In this document: positions 109 to 19,546 of the stretch, one piece after another
How the letters are laid out: each line of letters begins with the position of its first letter
How positions within the stretch are numbered: the first letter of the stretch is position 1
DNA from: a virus
Virus record (IMG/VR): IMGVR_UViG_3300044630_000542
Coordinates: 1-20,205 of that record
Reading direction: 5' to 3' (one strand)
DNA length: 20,205 nt
Translations under genes and position numbers: made by a program
Notes under the pieces: model-generated
Seen by the model: the letters and a program-made list of their open reading frames with translations, nothing else
What the model was told of the DNA's origin: nothing
The model's database searches: none

Positions 109-3100
109 ATGAATTTGAACGAAAAAGATAAACCAGTAGTAAAAAGAACCGTAGTAGTATACTCCGGTCGTTTCCAACCATTCCATAAGGGGCATTATGT
201 TTCTTATTTAAAACTTGCTCAAAAATTTGGAAAATCAAATGTATATATTGGAACCTCCAATGATACATCGGGTCCTAAATCTCCTTTTAATTTTAATGAG
301 AAGGTAAAAATAATTACTACAATGTTTGGAGTACCATCAGATAAGATAGTTCAAGTTCGTAATCCGTATGCTCCAAAAGAAATATTATCTCAATTTGATG
401 GTAAAACTACTGCGTATGTTGCAGCAGTTGGAGAAAAGGATGCAGATAGATTAGCAGGTAAATATTTTAAACCATATAAAGAAAAAGCTGGATACGGATA
501 CGATGAAATTGGATATGTATATGCCGTACCTGCCGAACCAAATCCAATTAGTGGAACAGATGTTCGTAATTGGTTGGGTAAAGGGAGTGATGATGAAAAG
601 AAAAAGGGATTTTTAAAAGCATATCCAAAATTTGACAAAGAGGTATTCGGTATGATAACAGGTAAATTAAATGAAAATGGTTTTCCAGGTGGTATAGGAA
701 CTGGATTAAATCTTCCAGGAGGATACATTAATGGAGCACCAACGGGTTCAACGGATGAGAGCAATAATACAAAGCCATCGTATGAAATGAGACCCGAACC
801 ACATCCTACACGGCATGAAACCGAACATCCAACGAATGAGTTATATAACCCAATTGCAGAAATACTTGGTAGAGTTGCAATGGAAGAAATGTTCGAAGAA
901 TTTACCAGAACATATTTTAACGAAGAAAGTGAAGCCGAAAAAATGGGATTAAAACATTTGGGTGGTGGATACTATGGTAAAGATGCTAAAGGACCTGCGA
1001 GTCACAAATCTGACGATGGTAAAATTAGAACCCTAACTCCTGCCGAAGCTGATGCAGTTAAGAAAAAACAAAGTGGTGGAATACCAAAACCACCTCCACC
1101 TCCACCACCTCCACCGCCACAACCAGGGCAACCTGTAAATAAGGGGGCAACTGCACAAGGTAAGGTGGATGCAACGAAACCAAAACAAGGTGTACCAAAA
1201 CCACCACCGCCACCACCACCGCCACCACCATCTCAAAAATTAAGTGGAGGTGAGTTAAAATCGTCTGCCGAAAAATCTGATAAAGAAAAGAAAGACGCGA
1301 AAACAACAGAAAATTTAAATAATGCTAGAAAAGGATTATCAAAAGAAGATAACGAATCAATTGATAAAGTAAATAGCCCACAATCGGAAGAAAGAAAAGG
1401 GGCTATGAGTGTACTAAAAAAAGCAGCATCAAAGATTGGGCATGGCATTATGCATACATATCAGCATAACAAAGAAATGCTGGTGGGAACAGGTAGTGCT
1501 ATAAAATCATTGGCAACCACTGGACGATGGGGAGGTGTTAAGGATTCAGAGGGTAAAACTAAACATTGGGATGATTTTACAGAACCTGATTCAACTACAA
1601 GTAAGTTAAATGCTTTTGGAAATCGCAAACCTAAAATGAAAGAAGTTCCTGTTTATAAAAAAGATAAACATGGTCATGATGTAGTGGATGCGGATGGAAA
1701 TAAGGTACAAGAAAAAAATTGGTTAGGAAAGCCAAAAACAACAAAAGAACCCGTATTTAGAGAAGATTTAACACCGGAACAAAGAGAATTAGCGGAAAAG
1801 TCTTGGAAAGAAAGTAAAAGACAAAAAAAGGCCGTTGGAGGTTTAGTAAAAACTACCGCAATAATTATGGGTTCAATCGCAGTTACCGGAGGATTGATAG
1901 GAGGTATTGCGGCCGCATCTAAAGGAGCGGGTATTAGTGGTGTTATACAAGGAGCTGGTGCAGGAATAGCAACCAAATTTGGAGGAGGGAATTTGGGGGC
2001 GTATATAGTTAAAGATATAATAAAACACTCTGCGTTTGAATCATTGGGAGCTAATCAAGCACAAGCTTCATTAGGAGGTATTGCATTAGGGGTAGCTAAA
2101 ATATTTGAAAATAAAGAGGGTGAAGAAGAATTTGATACGAAAAAGTTTGTGCCAAAGTTTATAGAAAAAACATTAGAAATAATGCAAAACTATAAACTAT
2201 CCGATGAACAATTGATACAAACGATTGCTCGATATAAAAAAGAAGGAACTAAAAATCAATCGATGGCTAACGCTAGAGATTTGATGAAAGAGGATTTATC
2301 CGAATCAAAACATCAATCTATTCAGAACTTTGTAGAGTTTGCAACTAAAAGATTGAAGTTAAAAGAATCTCCAAATGTAACATTAGTTGGTGGTAGAGAA
2401 TTTGCCGAAGTAAAAACATCATTGGGTGGATATAACCCGGATGATAAATCAATATATGTAGCAACCGAAGGTAGATTAACTGCTGATATTTTAAGAACAC
2501 TTGCACATGAAATGGTTCATAGAAAGCAAGATGAGTTGGGATTAGTTAGAAATGCAGAAAAAGATGGGGCAGATGGTTCTCCAATAGAAAACCAAGCACA
2601 TGCCGTAGCTGGAATTCTGATGAGAGAGTATGGAAGAATAAATAAACAAATATATAACGAAGTTAGTAATGTTCAAATTGCAAACACTGCAGATGTTCCC
2701 GATGGTTCTTTCATAAAAAAAGGAAAAAAGAGAACATTAGATAAAGAAAAAGGTGAAGCATGGTATAAAAACGGTGGATACACTCAAACTGATTTTCCAA
2801 AAGCAGATGCTATATTTGGTGATGATGATGCGGAAGAAAGAACTGTAAAATATACAATAAAGAATTTACCAAGTGTAGAATATGTAGAAACTGATTTTGT
2901 TAAAGAAGACATTAATTTAGATGTTGATAAAGGTGATGAAGTTTTAATGGGTAAGTTTAAAAATAAAAAAGTTACCGTTAAAGATATTGGAACTGATGAC
3001 CACGGGATGCCGACAATTAATGGTAAAAAAGCGGCAACATTTAGAATACCAAGAGGAGAATCTATAGGTGCAGCAACTCATTCAAAACACGCAAAAAGTG

Positions 3101-5337
3101 GTGCTCAAAAAGATTTTCTACATCACCATAAAACTAGTAATTACACTCCTGATTTGGGATATCCTGCAGAATTGGATACAGTTGATTTTGATGATACTAC
3201 AAAGCAGGTAGGACATCAAATAGATAAAAAAGATACTGAAGATAGAGGATATGAACCTGCAAAATCTTTAAAAGAAGTTGGTCCAAATGATTGGCACTTC
3301 AAAGCAATTATGCAAATATGGGATAACGCAGGTTCATTTGTTAGAAAAAAGATTGGAGCAATTGTTTGTAATGACCCTAAAGCAGATAGAAACGATGTAG
3401 TTAAACAATTACAAAACTATGGATATAAAGAAGTAACGTATGTTACTGATAAGTTGGGTTTAGCTGAAAAAACGAATCTACAAGAAGTACAGGCAGTTAG
3501 TGGTGGTAAAGTTCATAAGTTTATTACTGGTAAGAATTTAGGATTTAAGGGTAAAAAGTATTCCGAAATTGAATTTGAAACTTTAGGTGTAGATAATAAA
3601 AACGGAACTATTAGATTGAAAATACTTGCACCTACAGAAATTTTTGGAAACGAAATGAGTTTAGACTTTAGAAGTGTAAGAAGAGGTCCGTTTTTCAAAA
3701 CCGATACTGGTAAATTAAACGAACTCAAATTAAAAGATTTGGTGGGTAATCAGTACAAATATGTAATTGGCAGTGGTGAAGAAAAATATCTCGGTAACAA
3801 CGATAAAAAATATGTTTTGGAGATGATTGCAAAATCATTAGAAAACGAATTGTATGATTCCGATTTCGCTCTTAATTATTTAGATGGTTCACAACGAAAA
3901 GAATACTATTCATTTTTTAAAAATGAAATTTTGAAACCGATGTTGACCAAGATAGATTTTACTTTGAATACTTTTTTTACATTAGATAAAGATAAAGTAA
4001 AGTGGAAATTATCATCAAACGATACTCGTAAAATGGTAGATGAAATATTCAGAAAGAATTCAAAAGTTCCTTCTGATATTAAAAAAGAATACTATGAGTA
4101 TAGATTAGAATATGCAGGAGTTAAGTTAAACGAATCTCTTTTAACTGAAGGTGGTGCATACGGGCACATGTCTCACCCATTTGATGATATGGATTTAACT
4201 TTTGGTGATTTAAAAAACATAATAACTGGTGCATTAACTGGTGAATTGGAATTGACAAGAGAAAAAACCGATGGACAGGCATTGGCAATCAGTTGGAAAA
4301 ATGGTAGATTAATTGCAGCAAGAAACAAAGGACATTTGGCAAATGCAGGAGCAAACGCAATGGGAATTGAAGATGTTGCATCTAAATTTGGTGGCAGAGG
4401 TGGATTAACCGATGCTTATAACTTTGCAATGAAAGATTTATCAGCAGCAGTTCAATCTCTTTCAGAACCACAACGAAAGAAAATATTTAACGAAGGTCAG
4501 TGTTTTATGAATTTGGAAGTAATTTGGCCAACCTCGGTTAATGTTATTCCCTACGGACAGGCTCTATTAGTATTCCATAATACAACTTGCTACGATGAAA
4601 AAGGAAGTGCAGTTTCTGCTGACCAATCTGCTGCAGGTAAATTGGCAGGAATGATTAAGCAGGTGAATGCGGATGTTCAATCAAAATATACAATTCAAGG
4701 ACCTCCTGTCACACAACTTCCTAAAAATGAAGATTTGAGTGCAAAACAAAATAAATATTTAAGTAAATTACAAAAATTACAATCTGAATTTGGGTTATCC
4801 AATAATGATGGTGTTTCCGAATATCACCAAGCATGGTGGGAAAATTTTGTAAATAAATCAAAAGTTAAATTACAAAAATTAGAAAAAGAAGCATTGGTAA
4901 GAAGATGGGCATTTGGTGATAAATCATTCCGTTTAAATACTATTGCTGATAAAGAAGCTCAAGAATGGGCAATTGAAAATGATAAAGTAAACGTAGCAAA
5001 GCAACAAAAAGAAAATGTTAGACAATTTGAAGAAATATTTTTGGGAGTAGGTGCTGATGTTCTTTCATTTATGAGTTCAGTACTAACCGCAAATCCAAAT
5101 TCAGCAATTGCCGATATGAAAAGCAGATTAGAATCTACTGCAGAAAAAGTAAGAGGTAGTGGTGATGTATCTAAAATAGCTAAATTAAAAATGGAATTAA
5201 GTAGATTAGCATCTATAGGTGGTAAAGATAAAATAGTTCCAAACGAAGGTATTGTATTCGTTTATAAAGGTAACACTTATAAATTAACAGGTACATTTGC
5301 ACCACTAAATCAAATTTTAGGTATATTTTACGAATAA
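109..5337 (+). CDS. Giant multi-domain protein: NMNAT-like + metallopeptidase-like + ligase-fold nucleotidyltransferase, probable head-packaged polyprotein
   Basis: Domains in order. Residues 1-190 are an NMNAT/cytidylyltransferase-like fold with GRFQPFHKGH at 20-29 and SGTDVR at 148-153. Residues 245-322 include a GGGYYG motif. Runs of ten prolines lie at 328-337 and 365-374. A glycine-rich hydrophobic stretch spans about 575-670. A metallopeptidase-like domain at about 735-850 has HEMVH at 800-804 and a possible third ligand in ENQAH (827-831). A small beta-type module lies at about 937-983. From about 1348 to the end is a covalent nucleotidyltransferase (ligase) fold with KTDG (K1386 as candidate nucleotidylated lysine), a motif III-like stretch near E1470, EGIV at 1713-1716 and K1725. 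Prohead-protease-like sites occur at LNE189, LNE1342 and LTE1347, the last two directly before the ligase domain. Catalytic activity, substrates and packaging are inferred. The ATG at 109 is the only plausible ATG before the first domain. Confidence 0.85.
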   Translation: MNLNEKDKPVVKRTVVVYSGRFQPFHKGHYVSYLKLAQKFGKSNVYIGTSNDTSGPKSPFNFNEKVKIITTMFGVPSDKIVQVRNPYAPKEILSQFDGKTTAYVAAVGEKDADRLAGKYFKPYKEKAGYGYDEIGYVYAVPAEPNPISGTDVRNWLGKGSDDEKKKGFLKAYPKFDKEVFGMITGKLNENGFPGGIGTGLNLPGGYINGAPTGSTDESNNTKPSYEMRPEPHPTRHETEHPTNELYNPIAEILGRVAMEEMFEEFTRTYFNEESEAEKMGLKHLGGGYYGKDAKGPASHKSDDGKIRTLTPAEADAVKKKQSGGIPKPPPPPPPPPPQPGQPVNKGATAQGKVDATKPKQGVPKPPPPPPPPPPSQKLSGGELKSSAEKSDKEKKDAKTTENLNNARKGLSKEDNESIDKVNSPQSEERKGAMSVLKKAASKIGHGIMHTYQHNKEMLVGTGSAIKSLATTGRWGGVKDSEGKTKHWDDFTEPDSTTSKLNAFGNRKPKMKEVPVYKKDKHGHDVVDADGNKVQEKNWLGKPKTTKEPVFREDLTPEQRELAEKSWKESKRQKKAVGGLVKTTAIIMGSIAVTGGLIGGIAAASKGAGISGVIQGAGAGIATKFGGGNLGAYIVKDIIKHSAFESLGANQAQASLGGIALGVAKIFENKEGEEEFDTKKFVPKFIEKTLEIMQNYKLSDEQLIQTIARYKKEGTKNQSMANARDLMKEDLSESKHQSIQNFVEFATKRLKLKESPNVTLVGGREFAEVKTSLGGYNPDDKSIYVATEGRLTADILRTLAHEMVHRKQDELGLVRNAEKDGADGSPIENQAHAVAGILMREYGRINKQIYNEVSNVQIANTADVPDGSFIKKGKKRTLDKEKGEAWYKNGGYTQTDFPKADAIFGDDDAEERTVKYTIKNLPSVEYVETDFVKEDINLDVDKGDEVLMGKFKNKKVTVKDIGTDDHGMPTINGKKAATFRIPRGESIGAATHSKHAKSGAQKDFLHHHKTSNYTPDLGYPAELDTVDFDDTTKQVGHQIDKKDTEDRGYEPAKSLKEVGPNDWHFKAIMQIWDNAGSFVRKKIGAIVCNDPKADRNDVVKQLQNYGYKEVTYVTDKLGLAEKTNLQEVQAVSGGKVHKFITGKNLGFKGKKYSEIEFETLGVDNKNGTIRLKILAPTEIFGNEMSLDFRSVRRGPFFKTDTGKLNELKLKDLVGNQYKYVIGSGEEKYLGNNDKKYVLEMIAKSLENELYDSDFALNYLDGSQRKEYYSFFKNEILKPMLTKIDFTLNTFFTLDKDKVKWKLSSNDTRKMVDEIFRKNSKVPSDIKKEYYEYRLEYAGVKLNESLLTEGGAYGHMSHPFDDMDLTFGDLKNIITGALTGELELTREKTDGQALAISWKNGRLIAARNKGHLANAGANAMGIEDVASKFGGRGGLTDAYNFAMKDLSAAVQSLSEPQRKKIFNEGQCFMNLEVIWPTSVNVIPYGQALLVFHNTTCYDEKGSAVSADQSAAGKLAGMIKQVNADVQSKYTIQGPPVTQLPKNEDLSAKQNKYLSKLQKLQSEFGLSNNDGVSEYHQAWWENFVNKSKVKLQKLEKEALVRRWAFGDKSFRLNTIADKEAQEWAIENDKVNVAKQQKENVRQFEEIFLGVGADVLSFMSSVLTANPNSAIADMKSRLESTAEKVRGSGDVSKIAKLKMELSRLASIGGKDKIVPNEGIVFVYKGNTYKLTGTFAPLNQILGIFYE

Positions 5338-8351: not shown

Positions 8352-8855
8352 ATGAAACTAATAAACTTAATACCATTAAAAGAAGCAGATGGTCCTTGTT
8401 GGAAAGGATATGAGCAAATAGGAATGAAAACCAAAAATGGAAAAGAAGTTCCTAATTGCGTTCCAATGAAAGAAGATATTGATTCGGATGATGATGTAAA
8501 CTATGGATACGTTGAACCAGAAGAATATGATGTTGAAGATGAGGATATGGAAGACTTCATTGCTTTTATGCGAGGATATGATAAAAACTTAAACGAAGGT
8601 TGTCAATGTTTAAGAGAAGCTGAATATCAAGGTAGAGAAGTGAAATTGGGTAAACCAATGGCAGGCGATGTTAAGAAATTTAAAGTATATGTAAGAAACC
8701 CAGCTGGCAATGTTGTTAAAGTAAACTTTGGTCAAAAAGGAGTTAAAATTAAAAAGAACAATCCTGAAAGAAGAAAATCTTTTAGAGCAAGACACAATTG
8801 TGAATCCCCAGGCCCAAGACACAAAGCAAGATATTGGTCCTGTAGAAAATGGTAA
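8352..8855 (+). CDS. Small head-region protein with capsid-targeting-like leader and conserved Cys/Arg-rich C-terminal domain
   Basis: The 167-aa product begins MKLINLIPLKEAD, a leader like those of several neighbours, with a prohead-protease-like site LKE11 before A12. A following motif, GPCWKGYEQIGMK, resembles a short module I recall from other phage proteins. The middle is very acidic (about residues 39-75). Two further candidate sites, LNE82 before G and LRE89 before A, precede a basic C-terminal domain (from about 91) with FRARHNC and ARYWSCRKW ends (C150, C164), also a recurrent phage domain of unknown role. If cut, this basic domain would be released inside the head and could bind DNA. 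The ATG at 8352 is preferred because it follows the promoter-like motif and gives the leader. Confidence 0.8.
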   Translation: MKLINLIPLKEADGPCWKGYEQIGMKTKNGKEVPNCVPMKEDIDSDDDVNYGYVEPEEYDVEDEDMEDFIAFMRGYDKNLNEGCQCLREAEYQGREVKLGKPMAGDVKKFKVYVRNPAGNVVKVNFGQKGVKIKKNNPERRKSFRARHNCESPGPRHKARYWSCRKW

Positions 8856-11813: not shown

Positions 11814-13550
11814 ATGTCAATTACAAATAATACTATAGTATCTAATAAAATCAAAGAAATGGTGTTGGCTGAATTACGTTCAGTTAAAGCTATTCAAACT
11901 GATTATGCAAAAGTAATTGATGCTATGGAAACACATTTGGAAGCATATAAAAAATCCAAAGGTACTCCCGCTGAAAAAGAACATATACAAAAATTAAAAA
12001 CACTAACTGCTCAAAAGAAAAAATTAGCAGATGAATTAAATGCTAAAGTTAGTGATATGTATAAAGATGCCGAATTAAAAGTAGATGAAATGAATACTAC
12101 TGGCAATGTAGGTGGATATGGTACTCCATTTGCATTTAGCGGTAAAGATAGTGAAGAAAAGAAGGGAAAGAGACAAGCCGATTTGACTGGATATAGTGTA
12201 GTAAACGAAGAAACTCCATCGGAAATCATAAAAGATTTAGATAAAGTAAAAAATGATTTAATTAAAAAGGTAGATGTTCTAATTGCAAAAAAGAAAAAAC
12301 TTTATTCTAATATTGATATAGAATCACCAATGAGTGCAGATGAGAAGCAATTGGATAAAGATATACAATCTATATTTTCACAAATTCAACAAATAATTCT
12401 TAAAAAAAGAACCTTAAAAGAATCTATAAACGAAGGTAAATACTATGTAAGCTACAACAGAGGTAGAGGACAGGGTAAAGATTTGGAAAAAGAATTTGAC
12501 CCAAAAACCTTTAAAACAACTGGTAAGCCAAAAGTATTTAATTCATATAGTGATGCCAAAAAATACGCTGAAAAAATGGAAAAGATGTTCCGTAATTCAA
12601 TCGGTGGTTCAACGGCATATTGGGTATCGGATGAGAAAATGAATAGAGTAGAAGAATCAGTAAACGAATCTGATTTGAAAGGATACCTCGTTGCAGATGT
12701 AGTAGATGATATTATTAAATCAATAGGTTCAAAATTTGTAAGTGGGCAAATTAAAGATGGTGGTAATAAGAATAAAGTTTATCTTAAACTAACAGATAAA
12801 AAATTTGGTAGTGGGGTAGTTAAAATCCTAAAATCAAGATTTGGCATTGATTCTAAATATGATACAACATTCGGAAACATGCCATCAGTATCGTTTTGGG
12901 GCGATAAGGTAGTTAGTGAATCAGTAAACGAAGAAAAAGTTTATATTGATTTTTTAAATAAGAAAAAAGGATTCAAACAGGATAGGATTAAATTTAATTC
13001 TTATGAAGATGCCGTAAAATGGGCAAAAAAGAATTTTGAAAAGTTTAATCCAGATATGATTAAATACGAATCGGTAAACGAAGCAACAAAAGTTCATTTT
13101 AAAAAAGAACTTAAAAATGGTAATATCTTCCAAGTAGTTGATAGAGATACTACTGGTATGAGAGGAACGCAAGATAAGTTCAAGATGCAAATTGTTGATA
13201 AGAGAGGTAAAGTTGTTAAGGATTTGGGTTCACACCCATCAGTAAACGGTGCTGAAAAATTTGGAAATAAATTTGAATATATGAACGAAGCAATTCAAAA
13301 CGCACCCGCAAAAAATGGAAAAGAATTAGCAGATTTCATATTAAGACATTATGATTTTTATACCGATTATATTGATGATGGTGGACAGAGACGAAGAGCA
13401 ATAAAAAGTAATGAAGGTACTATTGAATGGTTCGATTCACATCCTATTGATTTGAAAAAGGAAGCACTTAAAATATTACAATCAAAGGTAGGTTCTTCTG
13501 GTAAATCACAAATACAAAGAGTTTTCGGTAAATCTACAATGGATAAATAA
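11814..13550 (+). CDS. Modular head-region polyprotein with repeated xNE cleavage-like sites
   Basis: The 578-aa product has a charged coiled-coil-like N-terminal part (1-200) followed by a string of small alpha/beta modules. The modules are divided by near-identical linkers: LKE203-SINE207 before G, SVNE285 before S, SVNE373 before E, SVNE423 before A and MNE492 before A; VNE132 lies in the N-terminal part. These fit the prohead-protease rule of T4 gp21, except that the P1' Glu sites are weaker. Modules 208-285 and 374-423 share FNSY-x-DA-x-K (242-245 and 394-397), so they look like duplicated domains. The 424-492 module has a similar end (SVNGAEKFGNKF). The gene lies about 1.1 kb upstream of the protease. 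I infer a polyprotein trimmed in the prohead to separate internal proteins; the function of the modules is unknown. Confidence 0.85.
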   Translation: MSITNNTIVSNKIKEMVLAELRSVKAIQTDYAKVIDAMETHLEAYKKSKGTPAEKEHIQKLKTLTAQKKKLADELNAKVSDMYKDAELKVDEMNTTGNVGGYGTPFAFSGKDSEEKKGKRQADLTGYSVVNEETPSEIIKDLDKVKNDLIKKVDVLIAKKKKLYSNIDIESPMSADEKQLDKDIQSIFSQIQQIILKKRTLKESINEGKYYVSYNRGRGQGKDLEKEFDPKTFKTTGKPKVFNSYSDAKKYAEKMEKMFRNSIGGSTAYWVSDEKMNRVEESVNESDLKGYLVADVVDDIIKSIGSKFVSGQIKDGGNKNKVYLKLTDKKFGSGVVKILKSRFGIDSKYDTTFGNMPSVSFWGDKVVSESVNEEKVYIDFLNKKKGFKQDRIKFNSYEDAVKWAKKNFEKFNPDMIKYESVNEATKVHFKKELKNGNIFQVVDRDTTGMRGTQDKFKMQIVDKRGKVVKDLGSHPSVNGAEKFGNKFEYMNEAIQNAPAKNGKELADFILRHYDFYTDYIDDGGQRRRAIKSNEGTIEWFDSHPIDLKKEALKILQSKVGSSGKSQIQRVFGKSTMDK

Positions 13551-13598: not shown

Positions 13599-14201
13599 AT
13601 GAAACTACATCAACTAAAAGAGTTTGTTAAGCAAACAATTAGAGAGGAGCAAGATTATCAACAATTGTTTAAGCACATGTTAGATAAAACTGGTAAATCA
13701 ATTGCAGATATGTCTGACGATGATAAGAAAAAATTCTTCAATGCGGTAGATACTGCTTATAAAGCAAAATCAGAAGGTAGATTAAGAGGATATAATGAAG
13801 CAGAACTAACCGCAGGACAAAAGAAAATTGATGTAGATAAGGATGGCGAAATTGAAGGTTCAGATTTAGCAGCATTAAGAGCTGGTAAAACAAACGAAGC
13901 GGGAGATGAAAGATTTGACTGGCCACCAGTTCTTGATAAATTCAAAGGAAAAGAAATAGACAAGTTGGAAGCCGATTATAAAGCATCACTTGCTAAAAGT
14001 AGTGCAATATTGGATAAACAACGCCAATTGATAAGAACTACACTTGGTAATAAATTTGAATTTCCGTGGGAAAATTATGATAAATGGCCAGCCAAACTTA
14101 AAGCAGAAGTAGAAAGATTAACTCAAGAATTAGAAAAGAGCCGTGCGAAACAACCTGAAATGTTTAAAAAACTTATGCAGGCAAGAGGTACTTGGAGATG
14201 A
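13599..14201 (+). CDS. Small head-region protein with leader peptide and EF-hand-type calcium loop
   Basis: The 200-aa product starts MKLHQLKEFVKQTIREEQ, a leader similar to those of nearby small proteins. Residues 78-89 (DVDKDGEIEGSD) match a canonical EF-hand loop with Asp at positions 1, 3, 5 and 12, Gly at 6 and Ile at 8. The last position is Asp rather than the more common Glu. Candidate prohead-protease sites are YNE67 before A and TNE100 before A, so the loop would sit on a fragment of about 33 residues if both are used. The C-terminal half is helical and charged. Its position between portal and protease corresponds to that of the T4 core proteins gp67/gp68, without visible similarity. 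Calcium binding is inferred from the loop alone. Confidence 0.8.
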   Translation: MKLHQLKEFVKQTIREEQDYQQLFKHMLDKTGKSIADMSDDDKKKFFNAVDTAYKAKSEGRLRGYNEAELTAGQKKIDVDKDGEIEGSDLAALRAGKTNEAGDERFDWPPVLDKFKGKEIDKLEADYKASLAKSSAILDKQRQLIRTTLGNKFEFPWENYDKWPAKLKAEVERLTQELEKSRAKQPEMFKKLMQARGTWR

Positions 14202-14647
14202 TAAAGTTAAAATCCATATTAATTGAAGTAATGAAAAAAAAAAGTGTAAATGAAAATTTAGCTTTAGGAATACTTGCAACATTAAGTGGTATCCTTATTG
14301 GTAAAATTGCACTTTATTACATAGGACAATTAGTAGAAAAAGGAATTAAATACTTTAATGGTTCTAAAGAAACTGAAAAAGAAATATCAGGAATATTAGA
14401 TAAATTAGAATCAAACAAAAAATTTATAAGTGATGTTACTGAATATATTGAAAAGAATAACGGAGTAAATGATGCAGCTGCAGATAAAATGGTTAAATCT
14501 AGTTATGTTCAATCTCTTATTAAAAAAGTGGATAACGATAATGTTGATAAAGCAGATTTAGAAAGTGGTTTAAAAAATATATTTTTGAAAGCCTGGTCTA
14601 ACGATAAAGACACGGCAATTGAAAAAGTTAAAAAAGATATAAAATAA
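14198..14647 (+). CDS. Small membrane-segment protein of the head operon, function unknown
   Basis: The ATG at 14198 overlaps the preceding TGA (ATGA), a typical coupling signal; a TTG at 14192 in the same frame is less likely. The 149-aa product begins MIKLKSILIEVMKKKSVNEN, a leader like those of its neighbours with a possible site at VNE19. A hydrophobic segment spans about residues 22-43 (ALGILATLSGILIGKIALYY), long enough for one transmembrane helix. The rest is charged and helical. A protein carrying both a head-type leader and a membrane helix could be an ejected membrane-active protein or an assembly anchor; this is inference. Confidence 0.75.
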   Translation: MIKLKSILIEVMKKKSVNENLALGILATLSGILIGKIALYYIGQLVEKGIKYFNGSKETEKEISGILDKLESNKKFISDVTEYIEKNNGVNDAAADKMVKSSYVQSLIKKVDNDNVDKADLESGLKNIFLKAWSNDKDTAIEKVKKDIK

Positions 14648-14648
14648 G

Positions 14649-15239
14649 ATGAATAAAGGATTATTAATAGAAACCCATTTATTTGAAGCAAAACTTCAAC
14701 AAGAAGAAAATGGAACCTATTTGGTAAAGGGTATTCTGCAAAGAGCAGGTGCTGCTAACCAAAATGGCAGAAGATATCCTAAAGAAATATTAGAAAGAGA
14801 ATGTCAAAAATACAAACAACTTATCAAAGAACGCAGAGCGTTGGGTGAGTTGGACCATCCTGATTCTCCTGTTATCAACTTAAAAAATGTATCACATAAC
14901 ATTAGAGAAATTTATTGGGAAGGTGATGATGTATACGGTGTAGTAGAAATACTTTCAACCCCATCGGGAAACATTTTAAGAGAATTACTAAAGAACAATA
15001 TCCGTTTAGGTATCTCATCCAGAGGATTGGGTTCAGTAAAAGAGTTAAGAGATGGTACTGTAATGGTTCAGGAAGACTTTGAATTAGTTGGGTGGGATTT
15101 TGTATCAAATCCATCTACACATGGAGCATTTATGGCACCAATTAATGAATCAAAGCAATGGGCTAAAGTTGCAGAAGAATGTGGTAAGTGGTGCAAACCA
15201 CAAGATTTGATGAGAGAAATTATAATAGAATTAAACTAA
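14649..15239 (+). CDS. 21: Prohead maturation protease (T4 gp21-like)
   Basis: This serine protease acts inside the prohead, cutting scaffold, capsid and internal proteins after (hydrophobic)-x-Glu. The 196-aa protein shows the features of the Caudovirales prohead protease (T4 gp21/S80-like): a candidate catalytic His70 in GELDHPDS, a candidate nucleophile S123 or S124 in LGISSRGLGS, and a downstream VGWDFVSNPS motif. An N-terminal LFE13 before A and a C-terminal INE167 before S look like self-processing sites, as T4 gp21 also removes parts of itself. It starts one base after the upstream stop. Many nearby proteins carry matching sites, which defines its probable substrate set. Residue assignments come from motif reading only. 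Confidence 0.93.
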   Translation: MNKGLLIETHLFEAKLQQEENGTYLVKGILQRAGAANQNGRRYPKEILERECQKYKQLIKERRALGELDHPDSPVINLKNVSHNIREIYWEGDDVYGVVEILSTPSGNILRELLKNNIRLGISSRGLGSVKELRDGTVMVQEDFELVGWDFVSNPSTHGAFMAPINESKQWAKVAEECGKWCKPQDLMREIIIELN

Positions 15240-15506: not shown

Positions 15507-16142
15507 ATGATACGTTTAAAAAACTTACTCAAAGAATCGGAAGAGTTACAACAACTCCCAACCGAAATGAAAAAACATTTTTTGGAAATCATTTCTACCT
15601 ATGGACAACATAGAGAAGCAATGAGTAGAAAATCCGATATTAGACAAGTTGCCGAAACATTGGGAGCTATAGCAGATGCTGCCCAAGAATATACATTAAG
15701 AGAGGGTGGTGATTGGTTTGATAGAGTTACTATTAAAAGAAATATGGGTGAGTTAAAAAAATTACAATCCTCATTCGAAAAAGAATCATTAGAAGCAAAG
15801 GCACAGGAACAACGATTGGAATCTCTATATGAAGATATGGGACATGTGTTGGGTAGATATTTTGAAATAGCTAATGTTTCAGAAAAAGTTATGAAAGAAA
15901 GATTGGGTAGAACTTCTATTCAAGAATCTAAAAAATACGATATTGGTTCCGGGTGGATGGGAAACGGTTTAACTATTTGGAATAGAGCCGAAGAACAATA
16001 TGGTGATTATAAAATAATTGCTCATATTAGTAAGGATGGTACATTAAGTATAAGAGATAAAAAATTACCAAACGATATCAAGCAAATGTTTCAAATGTGG
16101 GCAGATACTATGAAAAAAGGTGATAGACCTGGAACATATTAA
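15507..16142 (+). CDS. Head-region protein with leader and cleavage-like sites, function unknown
   Basis: The 211-aa product begins MIRLKNLLKESEELQQL, again the short leader with a prohead-protease-like site (LKE10 before S). A second site, LRE66 before G, follows. Residues 75-130 are helical and coiled-coil-like, while the final 60 residues (GSGWMGNGLTIWN onward) look like a small alpha/beta domain of about the size of the modules in the 578-aa protein. It starts one base after the upstream stop, within the protease operon. No family is recognised; a packaged internal protein is inferred from leader, sites and context. Confidence 0.75.
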   Translation: MIRLKNLLKESEELQQLPTEMKKHFLEIISTYGQHREAMSRKSDIRQVAETLGAIADAAQEYTLREGGDWFDRVTIKRNMGELKKLQSSFEKESLEAKAQEQRLESLYEDMGHVLGRYFEIANVSEKVMKERLGRTSIQESKKYDIGSGWMGNGLTIWNRAEEQYGDYKIIAHISKDGTLSIRDKKLPNDIKQMFQMWADTMKKGDRPGTY

Positions 16143-16184: not shown

Positions 16185-16373
16185 ATGATTATAGTTGATA
16201 TTAAAAACGGTAATATAGAATCTGCTCTGAAACAATACAAGAAAAAAATTCAAAATATTAAACAAACGGAAGAGTTAAGAGAAAGACAAACATTTGTTAA
16301 GCCATCCGTTAAAAATCGGTTACAAAAAGAAAAATCCATAAGAAAAAATCAAAAAGATTTGGGGTTTCTTTAG
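16185..16373 (+). CDS. rpsU: Phage-encoded homologue of ribosomal protein bS21
   Basis: The 62-aa product reads MIIVDIKNGNIESALKQYKK at its start and continues with LRERQTFVKPS near 31-41, which matches the bS21 pattern: short beta start, 'ALK-x-[FY]K-x-K', then R-x-R-x-x-[FY]-x-KPS, then a basic tail. The MII-x-IK-x-G start is the style seen in Bacteroidetes bS21. Length fits the family (about 55-70 aa). bS21 binds the 30S platform near the 16S 3' end and affects initiation. The upstream sequence is AT-rich and shows no Shine-Dalgarno. The gene lies between the protease and the scaffold, so it would be expressed late with head genes. bS21 genes are known in other phages; a role in redirecting translation is inferred. 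Confidence 0.85.
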   Translation: MIIVDIKNGNIESALKQYKKKIQNIKQTEELRERQTFVKPSVKNRLQKEKSIRKNQKDLGFL

Positions 16374-16545: not shown

Positions 16546-17904
16546 ATGGCAAATTCAAAATTATTGAAAGAAGCAATCGCTGATGCCAAAGCCGTTAAAG
16601 AAACCGCTTTAGCAAATGCAAAGTTGGCTCTTGAGGAAGCATTTACTCCAAGACTTCAATCTATCTTATCTCAAAAAATGAGAGCAGAAGCTGAAGAAAT
16701 GGGTGATGAAGAACAAGAAGCTACAAACGAAGAATTGAGTTCAGATGGTATCGGGTCTAAATCAGACGCTGGATATCCTCAAACTCCTGGTGCAAACCCA
16801 TCTTATGATGCAACCACTGATTTATCGGTAGGTGTAAAGAAAGATAGTGGTAAGCCAGAAGCAGCTGGTACTGACTACAAAAAAGTAGCAGACATCAACG
16901 AAGAAGATGATTATGACTTCGGTGGTGAAGAAGAAGAAGACCCTAACGCAGCAGAAATCGCAGAATTAAAAGCGAGATTAGCAGAATTAGAAGGTGAAGA
17001 AGAAGAAGCCCCAATGGAAGCTGAATACGGTATGGATTCAGAAGAAGACCCAATGGAAGGTGAGTATGGTATGGATTCAGAAGAAGACCCAATGGAAGGT
17101 GAGTATGGTATGGATTCAGAAGAAGATGCAGAAGATAAAATGGATTTAGAATCAATCATCAGAGAGTTGGAAGCACAATTAGGTGACGAAGAAGGTTCAG
17201 AAGAAGAAATGCCGGCCGAAGAAGACCCTAACGCAGCACAAATTGCAGAATTAAGAAGACAATTAGCTGAATTAGAAGGTAGCGAAGAAGAAGAAGAACC
17301 AAAAATGGAATCCAAAAGATTAAGAGAATCTCGTAGAAGATTGAAAGAAAATTTAGCCGATGGTTCTGAAGCAGGTACTGACAAAGGAGAAACTCCTAAA
17401 GTTGTTGTAACAAACGAAGCTGAAGAAGAAGAGACACTAGATTTGGATGAAATTCTTCGTGAAATGGAAGCGGACATGGCAGGTGACAAAGAGAAAGTTG
17501 ATGAAGAAGAAGATAAAGAAGAATTGAAAGCAGACTTAAACGAAGCTTACAAGACTATCAAATCTCTTCAAAGAACTATTAACGAAGTTAACCTTTTAAA
17601 TGCAAAGCTTTTATTTGCAAACAAATTATTCAGAGCACACAACATGACTAACGAACAAAAAGTGAAAGTGATTGAAACTTTGGATAGAACAAAATCAGTT
17701 AGAGAGGTTAAATTGGTGTTCTCTACATTAGCAGAGAATTTCAAATATACAACATCTTCTAACAAATTAACTAAAAGAGCCATTTCAGAAGGTATCGCTA
17801 GTAAAGCAGTTAAATCTACAAAACCTGCACAAGCTAAAGCGGTAATTAATGAATCGGTTAATTTTGCTAACAGATTTAAGAAATTAGCAGGTATTATTAA
17901 ATAA
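16546..17904 (+). CDS. 22: Prohead core scaffolding protein (T4 gp22-like)
   Basis: This 452-aa acidic, low-complexity, coiled-coil protein should form the core around which the capsid assembles before being degraded by the prohead protease. The C-terminal block with NLLNAKLLFANKLFRAHNM (near 348-368) and REVKLVFSTLAENF is typical of T4-like scaffolds. Candidate cleavage sites are numerous: LKE9, LEE31, TNE62, INE119, TNE291, LNE333, INE347 and INE436. The middle contains three tandem 13-residue acidic repeats and a duplicated PNAA-x-IAEL coiled-coil segment. The length exceeds T4 gp22 (269 aa), mostly because of this acidic insertion. It is followed directly by the capsid gene, as in T4. Confidence 0.93.
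   Translation: MANSKLLKEAIADAKAVKETALANAKLALEEAFTPRLQSILSQKMRAEAEEMGDEEQEATNEELSSDGIGSKSDAGYPQTPGANPSYDATTDLSVGVKKDSGKPEAAGTDYKKVADINEEDDYDFGGEEEEDPNAAEIAELKARLAELEGEEEEAPMEAEYGMDSEEDPMEGEYGMDSEEDPMEGEYGMDSEEDAEDKMDLESIIRELEAQLGDEEGSEEEMPAEEDPNAAQIAELRRQLAELEGSEEEEEPKMESKRLRESRRRLKENLADGSEAGTDKGETPKVVVTNEAEEEETLDLDEILREMEADMAGDKEKVDEEEDKEELKADLNEAYKTIKSLQRTINEVNLLNAKLLFANKLFRAHNMTNEQKVKVIETLDRTKSVREVKLVFSTLAENFKYTTSSNKLTKRAISEGIASKAVKSTKPAQAKAVINESVNFANRFKKLAGIIK
16933..16995 (+). repeat. Coiled-coil segment duplication, copy 1
   Basis: This 63-base segment encodes EEDPNAAEIAEL-x-x-x-LAELEG inside the scaffold gene. It recurs in frame at 17218-17280 with about ten base changes, so it appears to be an internal duplication of one heptad-rich unit. 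Confidence 0.75.
17011..17127 (+). repeat. Three tandem 39-bp repeats in the scaffold gene
   Basis: Units start at 17011, 17050 and 17089 and each encode PME-[AG]-EYGMDSEED. Units 2 and 3 are identical, and unit 1 differs at a few bases, which points to recent expansion. The repeats add negative charge to the scaffold's middle without disturbing the frame. Confidence 0.9.
17218..17280 (+). repeat. Coiled-coil segment duplication, copy 2
   Basis: This is the second copy of the scaffold segment at 16933-16995, encoding EEDPNAAQIAEL-x-x-x-LAELEG. The two copies flank the acidic tandem repeats. Confidence 0.75.
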
Positions 17905-17932: not shown

Positions 17933-19546
17933 ATGAACATTAAAAAATTAATGAGCGGCGCGAACCCACAGAGCGTGATGCTTGAGCAAACCAGAGGTTT
18001 GAAAGGCAAATGGGAAAGAACAGGACTACTTGAAGGAGTAGGTTCTGAAACTACAAAGCATGGTATGGCAGTAATGTTAGAAAACCAAGCAAAGCAATTA
18101 TTGGATGAGGCAACTCGTACTGGTACTTCTTCAGGTTCTGAAGAGTGGGCTGGTGTTGCTCTACCTTTGGTAAGAAGAATCTTCGGTTCTATTGCAGCGA
18201 AAGAATTCGTTTCAGTTCAACCAATGAACTTACCTTCAGGTCTTATCTTCTACATGGATTTCAAATATGGTACTAACCCAGCAGGTAATCCAAACTTTAC
18301 AGGTTCTTCATTATTTGGTAATGGTGGTACTTTTGGTAAAGATTCATTATCTCCAGCTGGTAACAAATTAGGTTCAACTCAAGTAGCTGAAGGTGGTTTG
18401 TATGGTGCAGGACGTTTTGGATACACAATCAACAATGCTACTTCTGCATCTCAAGTAATTTCAGTTGCTTCTGCATCTTTAGCAGATATCGATTATGATT
18501 TAACTTCAGGTTCAGTTTCTGCATCTTATGCAGCTAACACTTTGAAGAAAGTTGTAGTAGCATTACCAGGTGATGCTGATTTCAATGGTATTAGAGCTTT
18601 TGAATTATCATTATTGACTGGTTCTATCGGTGGATATTTCCCTCAATACACTACTAAAAATGGTAACAATGTTGAGTTCGTAGTATCAGCAACAGGTTTA
18701 GGTACTGGTAACACAGGTGCTTCTTTAGCATACCACGTTCAACCTACTGATATCTCTCGTGGCGATTTCGAAGATAGAGGTAATGACTTGGCTATTCCAG
18801 AAATTGAATTGGAATTGAAATCAGAGCCTATCGTTGCTAAAACACGTAAGTTGAAAGCAATTTGGACTCCTGAATTGGCACAAGATTTGAACGCATATCA
18901 CTCTGTAGATGCAGAAGCTGAATTAACTCAAATGTTATCTGAATATATCTCTTTGGAGATTGATTTGGAAATCCTTGAGATGTTGCAGCAGAACGCATTC
19001 ACAACTGAATATTGGTCAGCAAAAGTTGGATATGAGTGGAATGGTGCAGGATTCTCTATTGATGCTGCCAATGCATCTGCTTTCGCATACCAGAAGAACA
19101 CTTGGTTCCAAACTTTGGGTATCAAATTACAAAAAGTATCTAACAAGATTCACCAATTGACTATGAGAGGTGGGGCAAACTTCATTGTTGTTTCTCCAAA
19201 CGTAGCTACAATTTTGGAATCTATGAACGGATTCTCTGCTAACCCAGGTAAAGATGCGTTAACTTTCGCAGCAGGTGTAACTAACATCGGACAAATCTCT
19301 AACAGATACGATGTTTACAAAAACCCTTACATGACTGAAAACGTAATCTTGTTAGGTTTCAAAGGTTCTAACTTCTTCGAGACTGGAGCAGTTTACGCAC
19401 CGTATGTACCATTGATTATGACTCCTTTAGTGTACGACCCAACCAACTTTACTCCACGTAGAGGTGTTATGACTCGTTACGCTAAAAAGATTGTAAGACC
19501 AGAATTCTATGGTAAAGTTTTAGTTGACGGTTTGGATACTCTTTAA
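17933..19546 (+). CDS. 23: Major capsid protein precursor (T4 gp23-like)
   Basis: This is the shell-forming protein of the head. The 537-aa length is close to T4 gp23 (521). The N-terminal propeptide parallels that of gp23: KWERTGLLEG (26-35) corresponds to T4 KWKPLLEG, MLENQ (48-52) to IFENQ, and LLDE59 before A60 aligns with the T4 FLTE-A maturation site. The mature protein would therefore start at A60. The rest shows the gp23-like ALPLVRRIFGS and C-terminal FTPRRGVMTRYAKKIVRPEFYG regions. The codon use contains more C-ending codons than the neighbours, consistent with high expression. It starts 28 bases after the scaffold stop, with no promoter between, and is followed by a strong terminator. 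Confidence 0.97.
   Translation: MNIKKLMSGANPQSVMLEQTRGLKGKWERTGLLEGVGSETTKHGMAVMLENQAKQLLDEATRTGTSSGSEEWAGVALPLVRRIFGSIAAKEFVSVQPMNLPSGLIFYMDFKYGTNPAGNPNFTGSSLFGNGGTFGKDSLSPAGNKLGSTQVAEGGLYGAGRFGYTINNATSASQVISVASASLADIDYDLTSGSVSASYAANTLKKVVVALPGDADFNGIRAFELSLLTGSIGGYFPQYTTKNGNNVEFVVSATGLGTGNTGASLAYHVQPTDISRGDFEDRGNDLAIPEIELELKSEPIVAKTRKLKAIWTPELAQDLNAYHSVDAEAELTQMLSEYISLEIDLEILEMLQQNAFTTEYWSAKVGYEWNGAGFSIDAANASAFAYQKNTWFQTLGIKLQKVSNKIHQLTMRGGANFIVVSPNVATILESMNGFSANPGKDALTFAAGVTNIGQISNRYDVYKNPYMTENVILLGFKGSNFFETGAVYAPYVPLIMTPLVYDPTNFTPRRGVMTRYAKKIVRPEFYGKVLVDGLDTL

What the first reader, a model, noticed from the sequence alone, without database searches (positions are those of the whole stretch)
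11814..13550. A 578-aa polyprotein of small modules divided by near-identical SVNE linkers
Five module boundaries carry almost the same linker: ESINE-G, ESVNE-S, ESVNE-E, ESVNE-A and MNE-A (after residues 207, 285, 373, 423 and 492). Each fits or nearly fits the gp21 rule of hydrophobic-x-Glu before a small residue. At least two modules are related (FNSY-x-DA-x-K at 242 and 394). T4 gp21 is known to cut single internal proteins; a beads-on-a-string substrate giving six separate head proteins from one gene would be a different arrangement. I infer that the modules are cargo released in the head.
Basis: partly seen in the sequence, partly recalled or inferred. Interest (0 to 1): 0.78.

Follow-up and report, generated by a model that had tools for sequence, protein, structure and literature searches.

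The report
Phage head polyprotein of swappable cassettes
An aquatic T4-like phage strings small protein cassettes on one gene, joined by short linkers that look like cut sites of its own head-maturing protease; related phages swap, drop and reorder these cassettes at the linkers, which suggests a plug-in string of cargo packed into the virus head.

Summary
In detail: the 578-aa ORF has INE/VNE/MNE linkers at the five stated residues, plus VVNE at 132 and probably VDE at 92. Relatives in IMG/VR show that they are true module boundaries: a sister phage lacks exactly module 424-492, others lack 133-207 or 133-285, and in one group two modules stand in reverse order. Module 374-423 has 24 distinct flank pairs and is a stand-alone gene elsewhere. 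Mosaic breakpoints are enriched for [VILMF]-x-Glu, also after masking, though masking itself adds a little. The motif also sits in the capsid protein, scaffold and protease tail of these phages and ends a MIKLxxLLxE| leader on 17 protein clusters. The commonest linker is nearly fixed in DNA (GAATC[A/G]GTAAACGAA), so it is probably a recombination seam too. A homologue of a cassette fused to this gene in relatives (DUF3008) is annotated as a virion protein in cyanophage S-SCSM1, whose virions were analysed by mass spectrometry. Best reading: a prohead-core gene turned into a cassette array, cut by the gp21-type protease into small, mostly basic head proteins. Cutting and delivery are inferred, not shown.

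The parts
11814..13550 (+). the 578-aa cassette polyprotein (P0001)
   Evidence: 76 related loci in IMG/VR; dN below dS in each module of L001, L007 and L010 that could be compared and held substitutions
11814..12089 (+). module A1, residues 1-92, helical in a low-confidence model; in relatives L007, L010, L013, L014, L016, L021 preceded by a DUF3008 module
12090..12209 (+). module A2, residues 93-132, TGNVxGYxTPxAF; ends at linker SVVNE
   Evidence: by reading also in cultured phage Mel-JY01
12210..12434 (+). module B, residues 133-207; 56 distinct flank pairs in the pool, the window's included (40 printed); linker ESINE
12435..12668 (+). module C, residues 208-285; linker ESVNE
12669..12932 (+). 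module D, residues 286-373; linker ESVNE
12933..13082 (+). module E, residues 374-423; 24 distinct flank pairs, the window's included; solo gene in L245 and L247; predicted beta-beta-alpha-beta; linker ESVNE
13083..13289 (+). module F, residues 424-492; exactly absent in sister phage L001; also absent in L010; linker EYMNE
13290..13547 (+). module G, residues 493-578, C-terminal, all-helical in a low-confidence model
14649..15239 (+). prohead protease, Peptidase_S77 (gp21 type), the proposed cutter; its own tail has PINE|S
16546..17904 (+). gp22-like scaffold by position and acidity (no family hit), with several hydrophobic-x-Glu sites kept in relatives
17933..19546 (+). major capsid protein; LLDE|A near the N-terminus, LL[DS]E in 8 of 8 rows, LISE in Mel-JY01
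109..5337 (+). second cassette array, 1742 aa: cytidylyltransferase/NMNAT-like head, modules, ligase-like (KxDG, by reading) tail
13599..14201 (+). ORF with start MKLHQLKEF; its homologue in sister G001 matches the stricter leader pattern
14198..14647 (+). ORF with leader MIKLKSILIE then SVNE|N, capsid-targeting-like
   Evidence: same ORF in sister G001
15507..16142 (+). ORF with leader MIRLKNLLKE|S, capsid-targeting-like
8352..8855 (+). ORF starting MKLINLIPLKE|A (similar by reading) with cassettes CWKGYEQ and AEYQG that recur in other proteins

Best explanation
The gene is a prohead-core gene (it sits between portal and protease, where T4, by recall, has genes 67/68) that has become a cassette array. 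It is made as one chain, enters the prohead with the core, and the phage's own gp21-type protease cuts after the Glu of each hydrophobic-x-Glu linker. This frees seven or eight small proteins (6-10 kDa for modules B to G), most of them basic, which stay with the DNA and at least in part enter the cell with it. Because each cassette carries a linker that is both a cut site and a nearly fixed 15-bp DNA seam, cassettes can be gained, lost and reordered by recombination and still be released. Shown: modularity, swapping at the linkers, motif identity with the canonical substrates' sites, a virion annotation for a homologue of one module fused to this gene in relatives. Inferred: cutting, retention in the head, injection, and what the modules do.
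For: Exact module differences at linkers between relatives, among them a sister phage 94.6-97.5% identical in DNA over its four long aligned pieces. Of 167 distinct flanks of modules A2-G (A2 N-side and G C-side left out), 154 have [VILMFYA]xE within 12 residues against a random rate of 26%. Breakpoints enriched for hxE: z=12 unmasked, z=16 masked; masked controls hxK z=1.2, hxD z=2.7. P2 other than Asn is enriched as strongly ([VILMF][KTSDAQ]E 136 against 58.9), whereas [AGSTP]xE is not (116 against 115.2), which fits a protease rule with free P2. Same motif in capsid protein (8 of 8 rows), protease tail (16 of 16 rows) and scaffold (9 rows). Leader MIKLxxLLxE at the N-terminus of 86 of 1326 pooled plus-strand ORFs against 4 of 6521 interior Met, on 17 clusters of proteins; array modules occur directly behind such leaders (L070, L175, L033, L025 if it starts at its inner Met, and 4 printed solo YHKSY proteins). 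In the record of S-SCSM1 the DUF3008 homologue is annotated as virion protein beside a virion NMNAT with start MKSFLQFLKE|A.
Against: No cutting has been seen. P3 Val/Met differs from the printed T4 L/I-X-E. This ORF itself has no MIKL-type leader. P1' is Glu at two linkers here. Masking adds to z: with hxK or hxD masked instead, hxE just outside the alignment ends gives z 4.6-4.7 only, and [KRDEQN]xE also rises (z=3.3 and 4.5). Part of the signal could reflect shared linker DNA rather than protease selection. Whole-genome counts of hNE-rich proteins are only partly specific: 4 of 8 flagged ORFs lie in the head cluster of sister G001, and 2 of 5 flagged ORFs of G003 (protease and a module C protein) fit. 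In G003 as a whole the leader is no commoner than at interior Met by the stricter pattern (2 of 200 against 2 of 734). The whole-protein model is poor.
Confidence: 0.7

Rival explanations
1. The chain is cut, but its pieces are core/scaffold material that is cleared from the head, as with T4 gp22 and gp67, not delivered cargo.
For: The gene lies between portal and protease; Mel-JY01 has there a 178-aa protein with, by reading, an A2-like part and a helical tail; T4 core proteins are cut into fragments that mostly leave the head (PMC9026906, passages).
Against: The pieces are conserved, separately mobile domains; C to G are basic (pI 9.2-9.7) unlike the scaffold (4.4); module E also lives as a solo gene and in a protein with an ART-PolyVal match just under its cut-off; a homologue of one fused module is annotated as virion protein.
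Confidence: 0.2
2. An uncut polyvalent protein: the modules work as one injected multidomain chain, and the linkers are flexible seams for recombination only.
For: ESVNE is nearly fixed in DNA (GAATC[A/G]GTAAACGAA in 72 of 91 contexts; Asn AAC 87% against 31% background), as expected of a recombination seam; polyvalent proteins are a known injected class (PMC5512222, passages).
Against: The rule kept across junctions is hydrophobic-x-Glu with varied P2, the same as in the leaders and in the capsid protein, which a seam alone does not predict.
Confidence: 0.15
3. The linkers mark tail, baseplate or other structural repeats unrelated to head maturation.
For: Some hNE-rich proteins lie outside the head cluster in sister G001, for example at 123242-126367.
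Against: Gene position, the syntenic small gene of Mel-JY01, and the virion annotation of the DUF3008 homologue beside an NMNAT.
Confidence: 0.04

Closest known systems
T4 internal proteins (IPI-III, Alt) with capsid targeting sequence, cut by gp21
   Same: short N-terminal leader ending in hydrophobic-x-Glu on many genes of these phages; gp21-type S77 protease in the same cluster; small, mostly basic predicted products
   Different: T4 makes one cargo protein per gene; here many cassettes are strung in one chain and the linker is V/I/M-N-E; this ORF itself lacks the leader
T4 prohead core proteins gp22, gp67, gp68
   Same: gene place between portal and protease (T4 order recalled); T4 core proteins are cut into several pieces (PMC9026906, passages)
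   Different: here the pieces are conserved, mobile domains; no PHROG or Pfam match to such a family was found
Polyvalent proteins (Iyer et al. 2017, PMC5512222, passages)
   Same: many domains in one injected chain, extensive mosaicism; analogy to polyproteins drawn by its authors; module E occurs in one protein with an ART-PolyVal match
   Different: those authors propose embedded peptidases; here the proposed cutter is the separate prohead protease, and uniform linkers are the seams
phiKZ/SPN3US head proteins cut by gp21-like prohead proteases (PMC10052503, PMC5694885, passages)
   Same: Glu-specific prohead protease, many substrates, several sites per protein
   Different: there the extra sites lie in propeptides that are removed; no cassette swapping at the sites is described in the passages seen

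Membership tests
gp21-type prohead protease substrates | cut site L/I-X-E | tested here: inconclusive
   ESINE at 207 meets the strict T4 rule; VVNE, the three ESVNE, EYMNE and VDE meet only a broadened hydrophobic-x-E rule
gp21-type prohead protease substrates | S77 protease in the same head cluster | tested here: met
   PF03420 2.7e-31 at 14649-15239
gp21-type prohead protease substrates | processed protein found in proheads or virions | not testable with these tools
   no proteome of this phage is at hand; only a virion annotation for homologues of a fused module (DUF3008) and for an NMNAT in S-SCSM1
T4-like CTS internal proteins | N-terminal capsid targeting leader removed after hydrophobic-x-Glu | tested here: not met
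   this ORF starts MSITNNTIVSNKIKE without the MIKL leader; homologues of three other window ORFs match the leader patterns in sister G001
T4 gp67/gp68 core proteins | sequence homology | tested here: not met
   no PHROG or Pfam match above chance; only the gene place agrees
Polyvalent proteins | two or more domains of disparate activity in one chain | tested here: inconclusive
   many modules, but no known enzymatic domain recognised in this ORF; the 1742-aa sister array has a cytidylyltransferase-like head and, by reading, a ligase-like tail
Polyvalent proteins | domains of the published set (ART, ParB, MPTase, LPD ...) | tested here: not met
   none among the Pfam hits of this ORF at E<=1; ART-PolyVal only in L113, which also holds module E, 28.4 bits against the 31.2 cut-off

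The most novel reading that the evidence does not exclude
A protein-level cassette system: one 15-bp seam (GAATC[A/G]GTAAACGAA, read as ESVNE) is at once the recombination joint and the prohead-protease site, so any cassette that lands in frame in one of two array genes is packed into the head, released and delivered without a promoter, start codon or targeting leader of its own, much as integrons do for genes.
Probability: 0.4. Interest if true: 0.87.

Novelty: new variant of a known kind. Interest (0 to 1): 0.76.

Why it matters
If cut as predicted, phages have a modular way to load several small proteins into the head from one gene, with parts traded among phages at a fixed joint. That could explain fast turnover of internal head proteins, give a rule for reading long 'hypothetical' ORFs of aquatic T4-like phages (cut at hydrophobic-x-Glu seams and treat each piece as a unit), and offer a natural design for multi-cargo delivery by phage heads.

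Tried and rejected
Whole-protein structure: MAFFT misplaced the short module fragments, so a 4-row alignment was used and the model was poor. Fold searches with the module E model gave no match at E<=0.001 in PDB or BFVD. A link of modules C and E by FNSYxDAxK: only 13 residues align. ESVNE DNA pattern as a genome-wide marker: 0-5 hits per record in 11 records, and in G002 and G009 the reversed control pattern is as frequent, so genome counts were dropped as evidence. Cultured phages: the whole protein finds 2 of 50,697 records, both partial (residues 84-142, E 4e-4; residues 75-114, E 0.3). Bacterial origin of the modules: two scans of genome contigs, with the whole protein and with module B, found no relative. 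Pfam/PHROG naming of this ORF: best hits E 0.0048 (below the curated cut-off) and 0.093, rejected. The bias that shared linkers draw alignment ends was tested by masking and by control masks: masking a motif raises its own z (hxD -2.7 and -0.4, to 2.7; hxK to 1.2), so a few z units of the 16 are bias. The 79 architectures among 197 proteins rest on 21 hand-picked modules and include proteins cut at contig ends, so the number is rough. In one search module G is printed as absent in L007; this is only because that contig ends inside it.

Literature: eight searches (PMC open-licence papers only) listed nothing that, by titles, abstracts' beginnings and the passages I looked up, describes swappable modules joined by hydrophobic-x-Glu linkers in head proteins. 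Papers were seen as passages only, none in full.

Full report
WHAT IS THERE. The window is one virus record of 20205 bases holding a T4-like head cluster in order: large terminase, portal, a 290-aa and a 74-aa ORF, the 578-aa ORF of the finding, small ORFs, prohead protease of family S77, small ORFs with a bS21-like protein, a gp22-like acidic scaffold (by position and acidity only) and the major capsid protein. A 1742-aa ORF stands upstream of the terminase. The 578-aa ORF is as described; the linkers stand at 207, 285, 373, 423 and 492, and further ones at 132 (SVVNE|E) and probably 92 (LKVDE|M).

THE LINKERS ARE MODULE BOUNDARIES. 76 loci of IMG/VR encode relatives. Their ORFs differ from this one by whole modules. 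L001-L006 and L008 carry a version of 511 codons stop to stop; read in full, L001 lacks exactly residues 424-492, with hybrid linker YESMNE, although the L006 contig is 94.6-97.5% identical in DNA to the window over its four long aligned pieces. L007 lacks 133-207. L010 lacks 133-285 and 424-492 and has a new module before 374. In L058-L061 module 374-423 stands before module 133-207. Module B (133-207) sits inside 1000-2000-aa ORFs of other phages (L018, L019, L022, L047). Module E (374-423) has 24 distinct flank pairs, at 64-98% identity outside the window, and is a solo gene of 56 and 110 aa in L245 and L247. 14 proteins in 9 architectures have A2 towards the front and an NRWL module at the end, with nothing or a varying array between; this ORF itself ends in module G instead. 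The cultured Microcystis phage Mel-JY01 has a similar gene order and at this place a 178-aa protein with, by reading, an A2-like part and a helical tail. Its cytidylyltransferase-like protein is 639 aa, while the window's is 1742 aa with modules between the two conserved ends. This suggests two array genes that grew between fixed ends; the direction is inferred.

STATISTICS. 1654 unique ORFs of 187 sources (186 loci and the window) were compared all against all. At 653 non-redundant breakpoints [VILMF]xE lies within 8 residues in 322, against 189.5 +- 11.1 in 200 random placements; for the other 19 residues in place of Glu z is at most 2.4. To remove the pull of shared linkers, every [VILMF]xE with two residues before it was masked and the comparison repeated: 282 of 636 against 128.4 +- 9.6 (z=16); for the 7 other residues tested z is below 0; [VILMF][KTSDAQ]E 136 against 58.9; [AGSTP]xE 116 against 115.2; [KRDEQN]xE 199 against 153.6, z=4.5, a lesser rise that I cannot explain. 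Control masks show a small bias of the method: masked hxK z=1.2, masked hxD z=2.7; in those two runs unmasked hxE just outside the ends gives z=4.6 and 4.7. By module, 154 of 167 distinct flanks hold [VILMFYA]xE within 12 residues (left out: A2 N-side, 5 of 6 but with Ala at P3 only, and G C-side, none), random rate 26.4%; 4 of the 13 misses are sites that straddle my module border (IKE|A twice, IKE|S, VSE|K, read). Relatedness of the phages limits all these numbers.

THE MOTIF IS ALSO IN THE PHAGES' OWN PROTEASE SUBSTRATES. In one search, 8 of 8 capsid proteins have LL[DS]E near the N-terminus (6 followed by Ala, 2 by Thr), at what I take by recall to be the T4 propeptide place; 16 of 16 proteases have a hydrophobic-[NQ]-Glu-Ser behind the conserved domain (mostly MNES); the 9 scaffold rows keep several such sites. 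Rows include near relatives. The T4 rule in print is L/I-X-E (PMC9026906, passages); phiKZ has S/A-X-E (same passages) and SPN3US A-X-E (PMC5694885, passages). A relaxed P3 (V, I, L, M) is thus an assumption, backed by the phages' own MNES tails. In sister genome G001 the flagged hydrophobic-N-Glu-rich ORFs include the 1835-aa array (9 against 1.96), this gene's homologue (5 against 0.72), the scaffold (4 against 0.80) and a 312-aa ORF between terminase and portal (3 against 0.44), but also four ORFs elsewhere; in G003 2 of 5 flagged ORFs fit (protease; a module C protein).

LEADERS. A leader pattern (MIKLxxLLxE and variants) starts 86 of 1326 plus-strand ORFs of the pool; interior Met gives 4 of 6521; the parts behind it form 17 single-linkage clusters, among them an HAD-phosphatase-like sequence (motif recalled) and solo copies of an array module. 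The pool was chosen for having array modules; in whole genomes the stricter pattern gives 3 of 138 N-termini against 0 of 613 interior Met in G001, but 2 of 200 against 2 of 734 in G003. It resembles the T4 capsid targeting sequence, a propeptide of some 10-20 residues cut off by gp21 (PMC7411985, passages). P0001 itself lacks it; entry with the core through A1/A2 is inferred from its gene place.

DNA SEAM. ESVNE is written GAATC[A/G]GTAAACGAA in 72 of 91 distinct contexts; Asn is AAC in 87% against 31% in the same set of ORFs, Val GTA 97% against 48%. Conservation falls off at the linker's edges apart from a G (72%) and a weaker C (51%) at the next two bases (57 contexts with unique flanks). 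So the linker seems copied as DNA, which suits recombination at the seam; linkers with other P2 residues show that the protein rule is kept as well.

VIRION EVIDENCE FROM OUTSIDE. The module fused to the front of this gene in L007, L010 and others is DUF3008 (above the Pfam cut-off in L007 and L010). It finds 111 phage records, mostly cyanophages; the best, 78% identical, is the 69-aa ORF93 of Synechococcus phage S-SCSM1, annotated as virion protein next to a virion NMNAT (ORF91) and virion protein ORF92. The paper reports 45 proteins found by mass spectrometry and names ORF91 (PMC9602691, passages); ORF93 rests on the record's annotation. ORF91 begins MKSFLQFLKE|A. The window's own cytidylyltransferase-like domain did not match ORF91 directly; ORF91 and the S-SRM01 enzyme (which also has such a start) match L107 and L108, and the S-SRM01 enzyme matches the heads of the array proteins of L167, L159 and L162 at E 7e-6 to 5e-5, so that link is indirect. 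In Methylophilales phage Melnitz-3 the YHKSY module is, by reading, also flanked by hydrophobic-x-Glu sites.

MODULE NATURE. C to G are 6-10 kDa with pI 9.2-9.7, A2 is acidic (5.0), the scaffold 4.4. Module E is predicted as beta-beta-alpha-beta, pLDDT 76.6, ends less certain; no clear structural relative. A 1079-aa protein with module E in L113, there without hxE flanks, also matches ART-PolyVal just under its cut-off, a tie to polyvalent proteins (PMC5512222, passages).

VERDICT. A modular head polyprotein cut by the prohead protease is the best reading (0.7). What the modules do is open; I think counter-defence or host-takeover cargo more likely than discarded core material, from mobility, charge and kinship, by inference.

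Noticed in passing
window 109-5337: A second, longer cassette array: cytidylyltransferase-like head, two poly-proline runs, a zincin-like HExxH module, NDWHF module and a ligase-like KTDG tail; in Mel-JY01 the two ends lie in one protein of 639 aa.
   Followed up: partly
L132:2-2041 and L132:2824 onward: An intein-like insertion (starts CIAGDT, ends HN) splits the ligase-like module at its K|TDG motif (seen in the printout).
   Followed up: no
window 16185-16373: Phage-encoded ribosomal protein bS21 (phrog_21469) in the head cluster; Mel-JY01 has one between protease and capsid gene too.
   Followed up: no
G003 (record behind L025) 125951-130465, in locus L202: Neighbouring genes, several with an MIxLxxILxE-type start, far from that phage's protease at 18.6-19.2 kb: a possible island of packaged cargo genes.
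   Followed up: partly
L245:3992-4159, L247:3998-4327: Module E as a very small stand-alone gene without linkers in other phages.
   Followed up: partly
L183:7895, L186:10106 (leader cluster of 5 ORFs): Leader MIKLKDLLVE followed by a DxDxT phosphatase-like sequence (LRVLDFDDTLVKT), a candidate packaged enzyme.
   Followed up: no
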